Source: Chitinophaga pinensis
Lineage (GTDB): Bacteria; Bacteroidota; Bacteroidia; NS11-12g; UBA9320
NCBI GenBank assembly: GCA_945897885.1
Contig: CAMDGU010000027.1
Span: 1 to 39,399 of the forward strand
Direction of reading: 5' to 3'
DNA length: 39,399 nt
Position 1 is the stretch's first letter, and each line of letters opens with the position of its first letter. The position numbers were made by a program, and so were the translations under genes. The notes under the pieces were generated by a model. That model was not told where the DNA came from, did no database searches, and saw only the letters and a program-made list of their open reading frames with translations. Shown here one piece after another: positions 4,248 to 32,752 of this stretch.

Positions 4248-5057
4248 ATGCGTCATATAATCCTTACAGCAATTATGTTATGCACTTTAGGTAGTGCCAT
4301 GGCTCAGTACGAAGATTGGACATTTCCAAAAACAGCAGTTGCTGAGCGTAAAGTGATTCCTTATAGATATATACGAGAGGCCAATGTTAAATGGTCAAAA
4401 CGTATCGATAGGGTTATTGATGTACGTGAAAAGATGAACAAAGTAATGGATTGGCCTCGTAGCCCTTTTTACCGGGTTATACATGACAATGTTATGAAGG
4501 GTCTTTTAAAGCCATACCGAAATGATTCATTAACATCAATATTTACTCCTGAAGAGATTTTAAAGCGAGGAACAAGAGATTTTGTTACCCAAGTAGAAAA
4601 TCCTTTAGATCCTGATAACCCTATAGATTCAACAGTAACCATTCCATTTGATCCTGTTTCTATAAAAAAATATAGGATAATGGAAGATTGGATTTTTGAC
4701 CATAACTATTCCGATTTTAGAGCAAAAATTATTGCTATAGCTCCATTATACAAACCAATTTTTGCAGGAGTTGAATTAGGTGAGCAACCAATTTATTGGG
4801 TAAAAATGGATGATTTACGGCCTATAATTGTCAATATTGAATTGTTTAATACAGATAATGATGCGGCTCGTATATCATATGATGATTTTTTTCAAATGAG
4901 AATGTTTTCAAGTTATATAGTTAAAGAATCAAACGTATATGATATGGACATTAATCTTTTTGATGAGTTTAAGGATGATGGAATAGCTGCTCAACTTGAA
5001 AGTGACAGAATTAAGAATGATTTATTTATTCTTGAGCATGATTTGTGGCAATACTAG
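4248..5057 (+). CDS. gldN: T9SS ring protein GldN (PorN-like)
   Basis: Periplasmic partner of GldK in the T9SS ring that contacts the GldM tip. The 269-residue protein has a cleavable signal peptide (about 1–19, ending AMAQ) and then the characteristic opening with YRYIREANVKWSKRIDRVIDVREKMN. GldN-like blocks follow: FTPEEIL, KYRIMEDWIFDHNYSDFRAKIIAIAPL, YWVKMDDLRP and SYDDFFQMRMFSSYIVKESN. It is the last gene of the operon; a terminator-like hairpin with a T-tract follows within 20 bp. Confidence 0.93.
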   Translation: MRHIILTAIMLCTLGSAMAQYEDWTFPKTAVAERKVIPYRYIREANVKWSKRIDRVIDVREKMNKVMDWPRSPFYRVIHDNVMKGLLKPYRNDSLTSIFTPEEILKRGTRDFVTQVENPLDPDNPIDSTVTIPFDPVSIKKYRIMEDWIFDHNYSDFRAKIIAIAPLYKPIFAGVELGEQPIYWVKMDDLRPIIVNIELFNTDNDAARISYDDFFQMRMFSSYIVKESNVYDMDINLFDEFKDDGIAAQLESDRIKNDLFILEHDLWQY

Positions 5058-5073
5058 AAAATTAAAAAATACT

Positions 5074-5108
5074 AAAAGAGGGTTACAGAAATGTATCCCT
5101 TTTTTTTT
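5074..5108 (+). terminator. intrinsic terminator after gldKLMN
   Basis: An A-rich left side and GAGGGTTACA pair, with one T–T mismatch, with TGTATCCCTTT around a GAAA loop, followed by an uninterrupted run of T. It starts 17 bp after the gldN stop and ends the T9SS operon. Confidence 0.7.
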
Positions 5109-5153
5109 GCCACGACTTACATTGTTATTGTTATAATTTTTTAGCCTTAAAAT

Positions 5154-20451: not shown

Positions 20452-22029
20452 CTATTTCTTTAACATTACACCATTCAATCTATTTGAACCGCTTATAACA
20501 CTGTAATAATAATTTCCTGAAGTTAAATTATGGGTTTCGTATAAAATCTCATGGGTTCCCGATGATAGAATTTTGTTTACCAAAGTACAAACTTCGTTTC
20601 CTATAGCGTCATATATTTTTACCTGAGTGAGTCCGCCCGTAGTTTGAATTTTTAAAGTAGTACTATTTTCAAATGGGTTGGGGTAATTACTAACAAATGA
20701 AATATTTGACTTTTTAATATCGGTTATACTTCCTGTTGTTTTAAAAATTGGTAAAGTATCAAAATCTTTCAGCATAACACCTGCAGCTTCATTTTTGGTA
20801 AGTCCAAACCATTGTTGCAAAACAGATGAATAAATTTGTCGGAAGTCATATTGCATATTTACATTATCAGCAGCACCCACTGTTCCCGGGATGGTTGGGT
20901 TGGATCCAATTAGTGTATTATTTACCTTGGTTCCAAAAACAAAAGATGGTCCGGCTGCACCATGATCGGTTCCTAAACTGGCATTGGAAGCTATTCTTCT
21001 TCCAAATTCAGAATAGGTCATTCCGGCTACTCTGTCGACTACACCAAGTTTTTTGCAATCATCCATAAAGGCGCTGATGCCAACTGAAACTTTGCTCCAT
21101 AAATCGGCATGGGCTCCGGTTTCAGTTCCCCCGGTAGTATTAACCTGATTAGAATGGGTATCAAATCCTCCCAAACTTACCATGTAAATTTTTGTTTTTA
21201 ACCCTCCTGCTATCAATCTTGCTACAATTTTTAATTGGTCGGATAATGAATTACCCGTGGTAGCATACATTGTAGATTTTGTGGTTACGGCATTGTAAGC
21301 AGTTTTTATACTATCCGCATACTTGTCAGTCTGTTGGGCTACCAATCTAACATAGGCTAATTCTTTTTCAGCAGGTGTAGTAGGATTTGGATTTACAACG
21401 CTATCAGCAAAATTGTAAAAACTGGTAGGATTACTAATGGCCATTCCCATGTTAACTTCCGGGCCTTGCAATGCTTGAGAAACTACTCCACCAATGGAAA
21501 TGGCAAGTGGGTCAGGCATATCTGTATTTGGATAATTATTTGGAAATCCGGGATAAGCATCGTCCAAATATCTCCCTAACCATCCTGAATTAATGATTTG
21601 GTTACTATCTGATGCACTTAGCCAAATGTCGGTGGCTCTGAAGTGAGAAAAATTTGGACTTGGATAACCAACGGCCTGTATCACATTCAAACTGCTTTCA
21701 TTATTAAAAAGATTCAGCATTCCCGTCATTGCAGGGTGTAAACCTGTTTTTTCATAGCCTTTTAATTTGAGAACCTTGGTGTCTTGAATCATAATATTAG
21801 AGCGGGCCGCGGTAAGGTTGGTATATTGGTCTAAAGGAATCAATGTATTCAATCCGTCATTTCCTCCATTCAGTTGCACCAATACTAAAACTTTATCATT
21901 AAGGGCTGCTTTTGCTGCAAGTAATCGCAATAGCGGCGAATTTGCGTAACTGCGAAATGTAAGCCCATTAATAAAAACAGGTAAAAGTGAGGCAGCGGCT
22001 GTGCGTTTTATAAATGATTTTCTTTTCAT
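20452..22029 (-). CDS. DUF1501 family secreted protein with T9SS type A sorting domain
   Basis: 525-residue secreted protein. A basic N-terminus with hydrophobic stretch (MKRKSFIKRTAAASLLPVFI) forms the export signal. The DUF1501 domain (about 45–420) shows VLVQLNGGNDGLNTLIPL near 50–67, GLHPAM near 97, GGFDTHSNQ near 287, YSEFGRRI near 335 and GTDHGAAGPSFVFG near 350. DUF1501 belongs with the alkaline-phosphatase/sulfatase superfamily; substrate is unknown. The last ~80 residues (SNYPNPFENSTT, KIYDAIGNEV, SGNYYYSVISG) are a type A T9SS sorting domain. It starts 18 bp after the DUF1800 gene, its usual partner. Confidence 0.9.
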   Translation of the reverse strand: MKRKSFIKRTAAASLLPVFINGLTFRSYANSPLLRLLAAKAALNDKVLVLVQLNGGNDGLNTLIPLDQYTNLTAARSNIMIQDTKVLKLKGYEKTGLHPAMTGMLNLFNNESSLNVIQAVGYPSPNFSHFRATDIWLSASDSNQIINSGWLGRYLDDAYPGFPNNYPNTDMPDPLAISIGGVVSQALQGPEVNMGMAISNPTSFYNFADSVVNPNPTTPAEKELAYVRLVAQQTDKYADSIKTAYNAVTTKSTMYATTGNSLSDQLKIVARLIAGGLKTKIYMVSLGGFDTHSNQVNTTGGTETGAHADLWSKVSVGISAFMDDCKKLGVVDRVAGMTYSEFGRRIASNASLGTDHGAAGPSFVFGTKVNNTLIGSNPTIPGTVGAADNVNMQYDFRQIYSSVLQQWFGLTKNEAAGVMLKDFDTLPIFKTTGSITDIKKSNISFVSNYPNPFENSTTLKIQTTGGLTQVKIYDAIGNEVCTLVNKILSSGTHEILYETHNLTSGNYYYSVISGSNRLNGVMLKK

Positions 22030-30595: not shown

Positions 30596-32185
30596 TTATT
30601 TAACCTCCATTTCATCCATATAAATAACGTTGCTGCCTTCCCGGTCTTTAATATCTGACCTTTTTATCTTTTGTACTCCCCAAATTAAATATTTATTCCC
30701 ATACCAAGGAGTTACATCAGCAATGTATTCACTTGCTTTTTCATCTTCTTTAAGCAATCGGGGAAGTTTAAAATTTTCAGGGTCAGATACATCATCACCA
30801 CTTATGGAAATAACATTGATATTTCCTCCCGAACCATAGGATAGTTGAACATCTTCACCGTTTTGCAGCAATTCAACTTTTTGAGATAAGTTAAGATACA
30901 AACGATTGAAATTTAAAGGAACTGTTTTATCCCATTTAATATTTCCATTTTTATCAAAACAAAGAATAAGGCAATGGGTGTAATTATACCCTTCAAAATA
31001 TTGAATTAAATTTCCATTGGCATCGCGGTAGCTTGAGTACACAGGGTAAAAGGCCTCTGCGGTAGCTATAAAATCATCTTCACGCTCTACAATTTCATTA
31101 AATCGCAACAAGGTGGAGTAGTTTTTATAGCGTTTTTTTAAACGGTTTTTTCGGCTTTCGGAAAGTTCCGATTTTCCTCGTGTGTTTACATCTTCAATGT
31201 ATTTTTCAAACGATTTTAACTCAGAAAAGCGGAATATTTTAACAGTATTTACATTTTTATTAGAATCAATAATTACAGTGTAAAACCCTTGAGCATTGAT
31301 GGTGTTAATGTCATCATCAGGTTCAGGAACTGAACTGTTGAAGGTTCCAACTCCGGCAATTCCATTACCTGATTTTACCAATTGAATATTTTGAAGGTAA
31401 TAATTTTCGGGAGCTAGAATGATAACACTATCATTGGTTTTTAATCTGAGGTCAAGGTTTTTTACAATCAAAGCTGTTTTGCCATGGGAGTGGGGCCTTT
31501 GTTTAAAACTTGATACTGAAATGGTCTCACTACTTAAACTTTTATTTTGTATTTTATCAGGAATTGAAATTCCCTTTCCTACATCCGTTTGCTCATACTT
31601 AAGTTGGTTTTTAAGGTCAATTCTGGTATAGATACTTCCATATTTAAAAACAGATAATCCTGCCATGCGCAAGGGGAAGGATATAAAACAACACATGTTA
31701 AAGCAATGGCTTGCCTGATCATCTGGACCATATTTGAAAAGGAGAAACAAATTATTTTCAACAATTTTAGCAGAAACAATCTCTCGGGCATGACCTCCCA
31801 AGTTGTAAGTCTGGGTTGAATTTAGCCCGTCATTTAAATCTACCATATCCACTCGCAATTGCGAGGAAGATATACTTACCCAAATAAATCGGTTCGAAAT
31901 ACTGTCATTTAAGTATTTTTCAATAGTGTAGCGGCTTGGAATATCAATTAATTTATTCCATTGTTCCTCAAAATTGGTGTTAAATTTAGTAATGTTCCAA
32001 GAATTATAGGCATTTCCCCTGCGATCTCCCCCAGTGTACAATAGCAAAAAACCTTTTCGTTCCAAGGAAATAATTTCCATATCTTTTGGAATACGGTTTA
32101 GTTTTATTTCAATACGAGTATCCTGGCCTACACAAAACGTAGTTAATATTAGAAATAACGTAACTGTTGATAGAATTTTAAACAT
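30596..32185 (-). CDS. secreted protein of unknown function, probably beta-propeller-like
   Basis: 529 residues from ATG 32185, which gives the signal peptide MFKILSTVTLFLILTTFCVG. A TTG four codons upstream touches the -7 box, so ATG is preferred. The mature protein is beta-strand rich with blade-like phrases (GFLLLYTGGDRRGN, RFIWVSISSSQLRVDMVDL, CLILCFDKNGNIKWDKTVPL, KYLIWGVQKIKRSDIKDREG), suggesting a propeller. A Cys-rich patch (HCFNMCCF near 165) is unusual. No sorting domain is visible at the C-terminus. I do not recognise a named family. Confidence 0.55.
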   Translation of the reverse strand: MFKILSTVTLFLILTTFCVGQDTRIEIKLNRIPKDMEIISLERKGFLLLYTGGDRRGNAYNSWNITKFNTNFEEQWNKLIDIPSRYTIEKYLNDSISNRFIWVSISSSQLRVDMVDLNDGLNSTQTYNLGGHAREIVSAKIVENNLFLLFKYGPDDQASHCFNMCCFISFPLRMAGLSVFKYGSIYTRIDLKNQLKYEQTDVGKGISIPDKIQNKSLSSETISVSSFKQRPHSHGKTALIVKNLDLRLKTNDSVIILAPENYYLQNIQLVKSGNGIAGVGTFNSSVPEPDDDINTINAQGFYTVIIDSNKNVNTVKIFRFSELKSFEKYIEDVNTRGKSELSESRKNRLKKRYKNYSTLLRFNEIVEREDDFIATAEAFYPVYSSYRDANGNLIQYFEGYNYTHCLILCFDKNGNIKWDKTVPLNFNRLYLNLSQKVELLQNGEDVQLSYGSGGNINVISISGDDVSDPENFKLPRLLKEDEKASEYIADVTPWYGNKYLIWGVQKIKRSDIKDREGSNVIYMDEMEVK

Positions 32186-32296: not shown

Positions 32297-32324
32297 TTTG
32301 GCATGGTTTTGTATTATATATTTG
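32297..32324 (+). promoter_or_regulatory. promoter of the CTD-only mini-protein
   Basis: TATATTTG at 32317–32324 fits TAnnTTTG and lies 17 bp before the ATG. TTTG at 32297–32300 is a possible -33 element but at 16 bp is closer than usual. Confidence 0.45.
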
Positions 32325-32341
32325 TAAATTATTAATATAAT

Positions 32342-32692
32342 ATGAGATTGAAATTACTATTCTTTTTTCTGCTGTCTGTATCAATTTTAAGCGTTGATGC
32401 TAAAACTCCCAATCTGGGAACCGGAGACGGTGCAACCGGTTCGGTTGTTGTTTTAGGTCAGAATTATCCAAATCCTGCTAAAGGTAAAACTGTAATTTTG
32501 GTTGAATTTTCCTCTTCTGAAGCAGTATTGAGTATTTATAATGTTTTAGGAAAACTTGTAGAACAACATTTTATTTCTAATGATCAAAAAAGAATAATCC
32601 TTGATGTTTCTGAGTACAAAGAAGGAATTTATCTTTATTCCATAGAAGCGGATGGTCAGAAAGTGACCAAAAGAATGACAGTAAGTAAATAA
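32342..32692 (+). CDS. small secreted protein made only of a T9SS type A sorting domain
   Basis: 116 residues: a signal peptide (about 1–20, MRLKLLFFFLLSVSILSVDA), a short Gly-rich linker (about 21–36), then a complete type A T9SS C-terminal domain: LGQNYPNPAKGK near 38–49, VLSIYNVLGKLVEQ near 62–75, YKEGIYLYSIEADGQKVTKRM near 92–112 and terminal Lys. There is no passenger between signal and sorting domain. The ATG at 32342 is preceded by a promoter and the gene has its own terminator, so it is a complete transcription unit and not a fragment left by the window edge. Possible roles (cleaved spacer, T9SS-associated ligand as proposed for the CTD protein PorA of Porphyromonas, decayed protein) are inference. 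Confidence 0.85.
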   Translation: MRLKLLFFFLLSVSILSVDAKTPNLGTGDGATGSVVVLGQNYPNPAKGKTVILVEFSSSEAVLSIYNVLGKLVEQHFISNDQKRIILDVSEYKEGIYLYSIEADGQKVTKRMTVSK

Positions 32693-32719
32693 TTTTTTTT
32701 TAAACTCCTTAATATATCG

Positions 32720-32752
32720 AATGCCTTGCTGAAAAGTGAGGCATTTTTTTTA
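32720..32752 (+). terminator. intrinsic terminator after the CTD-only gene
   Basis: AATGCCT pairs with AGGCATT around a 12-base inner region and is followed by eight T. It lies 28 bp after the stop and directly abuts the mgtE stop on the other strand. Confidence 0.72.

What the first reader, a model, noticed from the sequence alone, without database searches (positions are those of the whole stretch)
32342..32692. Free-standing T9SS sorting domain as a whole gene
The gene encodes a signal peptide, a ~15-residue linker and a complete type A T9SS C-terminal domain, with no passenger. It has its own -7 box and its own terminator, so it is not a broken tail of a larger gene. In the pathway, the CTD is the ticket for export and is normally removed. 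A product that is only the ticket could be a ligand or sensor of secretion load (a CTD protein, PorA, has been proposed to signal through PorXY in Porphyromonas), a decoy, or an adaptor for cell-surface anchoring. This is the best candidate here for an under-described function.
Basis: partly seen in the sequence, partly recalled or inferred. Interest (0 to 1): 0.55.

Follow-up and report, generated by a model that had tools for sequence, protein, structure and literature searches.

The report
Stand-alone T9SS sorting-domain gene
This gene makes almost nothing but an export tag of the kind bacteria normally attach to cargo proteins, and its conservation as a stand-alone gene in related bacteria suggests that the tag itself does a job, perhaps tuning the secretion machine.

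Summary
Window 32342-32692 (+) encodes 116 aa: signal-peptide-like start, short linker, complete type A T9SS sorting domain (CTD), no passenger, with a -7 box and a terminator. It is not a dead remnant: 34 of 38 genomes of its family carry one strong match, each in a short frame. The CTD is under purifying selection; signal peptide and linker drift. Three family genomes gave no such match and one has a frameshifted copy; all four have a SprA gene, so it is not essential for T9SS.

A sister family has stand-alone CTD genes in at least 20 of 70 genomes. In 18 of the 20 the gene lies between an M1 aminopeptidase gene and a PorE-like gene. All 20 have a sigma-54-like -24/-12 site upstream, against 0 of 870 control ORFs. 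Common origin of the two families' genes is not proven: the tree separates them.

Best guess (0.38): a regulated, passenger-free ligand of the CTD receptor (PorV/SprA) that tunes secretion. A minimal secreted cargo (0.32) is a close rival.

The parts
32342..32692 (+). Stand-alone T9SS type A CTD gene, 116 aa
32342..32401 (+). Signal-peptide-like start, residues 1-20 (cleavage site by eye)
   Evidence: Sequence; crude rule passes 50 of 50 family members
32402..32461 (+). Linker, residues 21-40, fast evolving; much shorter in genus g10
32462..32689 (+). CTD, residues 41-116, seven-strand sandwich
   Evidence: purifying selection
32297..32304 (+). TTTGGCAT element; TGGCAY lies within 60 nt upstream in 18 of 30 f1 and 18 of 20 f2 stand-alone CTD genes, 15 of 904 control ORFs
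32317..32324 (+). -7 box TATATTTG (TAnnTTTG; consensus recalled)
   Evidence: within 40 nt of the start in 29 of 30 f1 genes and 2 of 20 f2 genes
32719..32746 (+). Terminator hairpin followed by T run, between the convergent CTD and mgtE genes

Best explanation
The gene makes a dedicated, passenger-free T9SS CTD protein. It is exported by Sec and the signal peptide removed, leaving essentially the folded CTD. A CTD is what the T9SS receptor (PorV loops inside SprA) binds, so the product most likely acts as a ligand of that receptor, a substrate mimic that occupies or titrates the carrier or translocon and so tunes secretion. Shown here: CTD-only architecture, conservation as a stand-alone gene, selection on the CTD but little on the linker, a conserved promoter region, and, in a sister family, a place beside a PorE-like gene behind a sigma-54-like site. 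Inferred: Sec export, binding to PorV/SprA, the tuning role, and that the two families' genes are the same gene.
For: One strong match, short frame, in 34 of 38 f1 genomes. dN/dS of the CTD 0.004-0.25 in the 14 of 21 pairs where it could be computed, of signal peptide + linker 0.20-1.04 in 19 of 21. In f2, 18 of 20 such genes lie between an M1 peptidase gene and a PorE-like gene. Sigma-54-like site in 20 of 20 f2 genes, 0 of 870 control ORFs. A CTD buries about 1,850 square angstroms on SprA and PorV (PMC10994853, passages). Own genome: 150 TIGR04183 matches and a full-length SprA gene.
Against: No binding was tested. G009, G012 and G020 have no such match and G029 a frameshifted copy, though all four have SprA. 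The lone CTD is not more conserved than the CTD of a ~650-residue cargo (83 of 153 pairs; 20 of 84 between genera, 60 of 66 within g10), so selection need not mean a special role. f1 and f2 genes form separate clades, and in f1 no lone CTD was seen within the 1.5-kb flanks of the 12 PorE-like loci fetched. PorV is thought to be in excess or recycled (PMC12618676, passages), which would weaken titration. Four of the 20 f2 genomes with the sigma-54-like site, one of them rated 100% complete, gave no RpoN hit.
Confidence: 0.38

Rival explanations
1. A minimal secreted cargo: the small Ig-like sandwich is itself the useful product outside the cell (adhesive or structural), exported by T9SS or by another route, with no role in regulating the machine.
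For: A 112-residue CTD protein of F. johnsoniae, Fjoh_0547, is found in supernatants even of sprA and porV mutants (PMC7712824, Discussion part 1). The CTD is about as conserved as that of a ~650-residue cargo. DUF3244 domains of Bacteroides share the fold.
Against: 18 of 20 f2 genes lie beside a PorE-like gene. No extra domain or insert beyond the CTD is present.
Confidence: 0.32
2. A PorA-like reporter: the CTD protein feeds the state of secretion back to T9SS gene expression, for example through PorXY.
For: PorA, a CTD protein, affects PorXY-SigP signalling and its CTD interacts with PorV (PMC7712824, abstract, section list and Discussion part 1). The f2 promoters look regulated.
Against: PorA's N-terminal FimH-like domain is absent. 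PorX, PorY and SigP were not searched for in these genomes.
Confidence: 0.12
3. A partner of the PorE-like protein: an adaptor that links a CTD carrier or surface protein to the cell wall.
For: Adjacent to a PorE-like gene in 18 of 20 f2 loci. In F. johnsoniae a PorE homologue appears to anchor a type B substrate (PMC12618676, passages).
Against: In f1 it is not near the PorE-like loci examined (12 fetched, 1.5-kb flanks). The PorE-like proteins score 364-428 bits, below the NF052230 cut-off of 600. This CTD is type A, the anchored one type B.
Confidence: 0.12
4. A non-functional remnant or split-off tail of a larger cargo gene.
For: G029 has a frameshifted copy. In f2 an exported M1 peptidase gene lies directly upstream. 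In family f5 CTD-bearing frames of 339-474 codons lie directly beside the M1 gene (3 of 3 loci read: L249, L252, L256), so origin by passenger loss at that locus is open.
Against: Stand-alone in 34 of 34 strong f1 matches; selection on the CTD; own promoter and terminator. The M1 frames of 27 class genomes outside the order are 783-858 codons and none was hit by the lone-CTD profile, so it is not the lost tail of M1.
Confidence: 0.04

Closest known systems
T9SS type A sorting domain (TIGR04183 / PF18962)
   Same: Sequence and fold of the CTD; both curated cut-offs passed
   Different: Normally the tail of a much larger cargo protein; here it is nearly the whole mature protein
Fjoh_0547 of Flavobacterium johnsoniae (112 aa, known to me only from PMC7712824)
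   Same: Small CTD protein of about the same length
   Different: Its sequence was not compared; no conserved family, promoter or PorE neighbour is described in the passage read
PorA (PGN_0123) of Porphyromonas gingivalis
   Same: Small CTD protein linked to control of T9SS genes
   Different: 246 aa with an N-terminal FimH-like domain
CTDs of PorU and PorZ
   Same: Same fold (Z 10.5 and 9.8); CTDs that are not cleaved off (PMC11285876, passages)
   Different: Attached to large T9SS component proteins
DUF3244 (PF11589)
   Same: Similar fold (3sd2: Foldseek rank 1 by E-value; Z 9.2)
   Different: About 15% identity; the best family member scanned scores 18.7 bits, below the cut-off 25

Membership tests
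T9SS type A CTD (TIGR04183 / PF18962) | Score above the curated cut-off | tested here: met
   50.1 against 23 bits; 55.9 against 27 bits
T9SS type A CTD (TIGR04183 / PF18962) | Conserved glycine after beta-3 and conserved C-terminus, needed for T9SS function in P. gingivalis (PMC11285876, passages) | tested here: met
   G70 invariant and K116 at least 90% in 30 f1 sequences; equivalence of the positions judged by eye
T9SS cargo protein | Signal peptide | tested here: inconclusive
   Crude rule passes 50 of 50; no predictor available
T9SS cargo protein | A passenger domain | tested here: not met
   118 codons from stop to stop; no other Pfam domain above cut-off
T9SS cargo protein | Translocation and CTD removal | not testable with these tools
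   Needs an experiment
PorA | N-terminal FimH-like domain | tested here: not met
   No room: signal peptide and linker only
DUF3244 (PF11589) | Score above the gathering cut-off of 25 | tested here: not met
   Window protein not listed at E up to 1; a g10 member scores 18.7
Neighbour gene as PorE (NF052230) | Score above 600 bits | tested here: not met
   Three f2 neighbours score 379.5, 364 and 428.2 over nearly the whole model; hence 'PorE-like'
Sigma-54 promoter (-24/-12; consensus recalled) | GG and G(C) elements ten bases apart, TGGCAC-N5-TTGC | tested here: inconclusive
   f2: TGGC[AC]Y-N5-TTG in 20 of 20, GC in 8 of 20; f1: -12 G in 0 of 18; the window copy is one base short and not met. 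No transcript start known

The most novel reading that the evidence does not exclude
Two sister families of uncultured Bacteroidota keep a T9SS component that is only the export ticket: a state-controlled, passenger-free CTD, ancestrally under sigma-54 and set beside a porE-like gene, that regulates the secretion machine by imitating its substrate.
Probability: 0.25. Interest if true: 0.75.

Novelty: new variant of a known kind. Interest (0 to 1): 0.55.

Why it matters
CTDs are treated as sorting signals that are discarded after use. A single, selected protein that is nothing but a CTD, and in relatives stands beside a porE-like gene behind a promoter of alternative-sigma type, would mean that the signal can act in its own right. 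It would give a natural probe of what CTD occupancy does to PorV and SprA, which can be tested in a laboratory model such as Flavobacterium johnsoniae.

Tried and rejected
Dead remnant: rejected on conservation and selection. Tail of the M1 peptidase: M1 frames of 27 class genomes outside the order are 783-858 codons and none is hit by the lone-CTD profile. Against this, nine CTD-bearing frames (98-474 codons) lie elsewhere in eight of those loci; five are cut by the locus end. In three f5 loci CTD frames abut M1 (one 339-codon frame 42 bases after it, and frames of 430-474 codons before it), so descent from a passenger-bearing neighbour of M1 is open.

Linker as peptide message: rejected, the linker drifts. 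Viral spread: 18 pattern matches, none a relative by tblastn.

Other short CTD frames of the own genome: six frames of at most 120 codons, the window gene included. Four were read (C10 52.3 bits, C4 37.9, C3 34.8, C76 26); none begins like a signal peptide. C117 at a contig start was not read. Frames of 150-200 codons were not examined.

Regulon: the combined pattern gave 5 sites in the own genome, reversed control 1; the sigma-54-like pattern 17 sites in 8 genomes, control 3, two of the 17 being the lone CTD genes themselves. Before plausible starts: HtrA-like, DUF1573-like and thioredoxin-like genes and small exported proteins (names by eye). Too few to define a regulon.

Common origin of f1 and f2 genes: a tree of 115 CTDs gives f1 (29 pure, support 0.61; 30 with one outsider, 0.92) and f2 (18 pure, 0.93; 20 with three outsiders, 0.80) apart; 75-residue domains resolve deep nodes poorly.

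Extra conservation: the lone CTD beats a ~250-residue cargo's CTD in 102 of 105 pairs but not a ~650-residue cargo's.

Literature: Fjoh_0547 occurs in one held paper; stand-alone-CTD phrases, DUF3244, small CTD proteins, sigma-54 with T9SS and PorE with CTD and operon listed no paper that I recognised by title or abstract as describing this gene type; PMC10202324 had no match for five terms.

Limits: hit lists are cut, so 20 of 70 is a lower bound and absence outside the order covers only listed hits of 395 genomes. The promoter motifs were defined after looking at these genes. The start codons of f2 genes were chosen by rule. 30 of the 34 f1 genes were aligned (G032, G058, G059, G060 not). 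Three frames (L181-L183) were dropped from the f2 set as cargo or cut frames. dS is saturated in several pairs.

Full report
What is there. The ORF at 32342-32692 encodes a signal-peptide-like start, a linker of about 20 residues and a complete type A CTD (PF18962 55.9 bits; TIGR04183 50.1 bits). The frame is open for 118 codons from stop to stop. A TATATTTG box lies 17 bases before the ATG and a strong terminator follows. The genome has 150 TIGR04183 matches and a full-length SprA gene, so a T9SS is very likely present.

Is it a real gene? A protein search of 58 genomes and a profile search of 108 genomes of the order gave one strong match in each of 34 of the 38 genomes of its family (f1), E 1.0e-45 to 8.4e-39, then a gap to 3.8e-19. 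The 34 frames are 82-176 codons; the 82-codon one (G058) starts at a contig edge. G029, the 3.8e-19 match, is a frameshifted copy in a locus with mgtE and ksgA. G009, G012 and G020 have only weaker matches. All four have SprA matches, so the gene is dispensable. In 30 aligned sequences conservation begins at the CTD. Among seven species of the genus, dN/dS of the CTD is 0.004-0.25 in 14 of 21 pairs (7 undefined) and of signal peptide plus linker 0.20-1.04 in 19 of 21 (NG86, dS partly saturated). In genus g10 only 29 or 30 residues precede PNP, counted from the start codon, which leaves little beyond a signal peptide. The CTD is the part under selection.

Compared with cargo in the same genomes, the lone CTD is more conserved than that of a ~250-residue cargo in 102 of 105 pairs, but equal to that of a ~650-residue cargo: 83 of 153 pairs, 20 of 84 between genera, 60 of 66 within g10. 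It evolves like the CTD of a well-kept cargo.

Neighbourhood. mgtE and/or ksgA lies in 26 of 33 named relatives' loci; in g2, g3 and g6 the neighbours differ. The gene moves, so mgtE is probably not a partner.

The sister family. A profile of four g16 genes found further stand-alone CTD genes in f2. Reading the frames gives 20 genes in 20 of 70 genomes: nine in g16, six in g12, one in g22, two in g20, two in g14. In the 18 outside g14 the gene lies between an M1 aminopeptidase gene and a gene with TPR, PD40, carboxypeptidase-regulatory and OmpA domains. Three of these neighbours score 364-428 bits against NF052230 (PorE), over nearly the whole model but below its cut-off of 600. In the two g14 genomes the neighbours differ. 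Outside the order, the listed best hits among 395 class genomes are all in frames of 200 codons or more (list cut). M1 frames outside the order show no CTD tail, but in family f5 CTD-bearing genes of 339-474 codons abut M1 in the three loci read, so the f2 gene might descend from such a neighbour by passenger loss.

Promoter. TGGCAY lies within 60 bases of the start in 18 of 30 f1 and 18 of 20 f2 genes, against 15 of 904 control ORFs. In 20 of 20 f2 genes the site reads TGGC[AC]Y-N5-TTG, seen in 0 of 870 control ORFs and 0 of 82 in the same f2 loci. This is the spacing of a sigma-54 -24/-12 promoter (consensus recalled). RpoN was found in 99 of 108 genomes, but not in G046, G062, G100 and G104, four of the 20. 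In f1 the -12 G is lost (0 of 18) and TAnnTTTG is present in 29 of 30, against 2 of 20 in f2. I infer that the promoter changed class and kept its upstream half. A published analysis links sigma-54 in Bacteroidota with chaperones and proteases (PMC12316311, passages); in the own genome such a site precedes an HtrA-like and a DUF1573-like gene (names by eye). This hints at an envelope-state regulon, no more.

Structure. The model is confident over the CTD. It matches the CTDs of mirolase, PorU, PorZ and NucA (Z 10.6, 10.5, 9.8, 9.3) and DUF3244 domains (Z 9.2). The top row is an S-layer protein (10.7) and fibronectin-type domains reach 9.6, so the fold alone proves little. The best PDB sequence match is 8glj chain D (E 3.3e-9), the FspA CTD in a T9SS complex.

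How it may work. In F. johnsoniae a CTD is bound inside SprA by PorV loops and SprA, burying about 1,850 square angstroms (PMC10994853, passages). A protein that is only a CTD should fit the same site. With no passenger to deliver, it either acts on that machine (0.38), is a small secreted product (0.32), signals like PorA (0.12) or partners the PorE-like protein (0.12). Precedents are PorA and Fjoh_0547 (PMC7712824, abstract and part 1 of the Discussion). Against simple titration, PorV is thought to be in excess or recycled (PMC12618676, passages).

Novelty. Small CTD proteins are known, so the kind is known. A conserved stand-alone CTD gene family that, in relatives, stands beside a PorE-like gene behind a sigma-54-like site was not seen in the paper searches made (listings only, apart from the papers named). 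I rate it a new variant of a known kind.

Noticed in passing
L123 (G029:C66), about 4850-5150: Frameshifted copy of the stand-alone CTD gene in a locus with mgtE and ksgA; could be decay or assembly error.
   Followed up: partly
window 20482-20685 (-): A second, ordinary CTD-bearing gene in the window, TIGR04183 30.4 bits in a 531-codon frame.
   Followed up: no
L188, L191, L197 (G046 and G050): Genes for 140-residue exported proteins (in G046 two nearly identical ones in tandem), each with a sigma-54-like site upstream.
   Followed up: no
g10 orthologues, e.g. L028, L029, L035-L038: Several of these stand-alone CTD genes seem to start with GTG or TTG.
   Followed up: no
window 30596-32182 (-): A 528-residue protein, found again in four relatives of the genus (L039-L042), with no Pfam or NCBIfam match at E up to 1.
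   Followed up: no
L249, L252, L256 (family f5): CTD-bearing frames of 339-474 codons directly beside the M1 aminopeptidase gene.
   Followed up: partly
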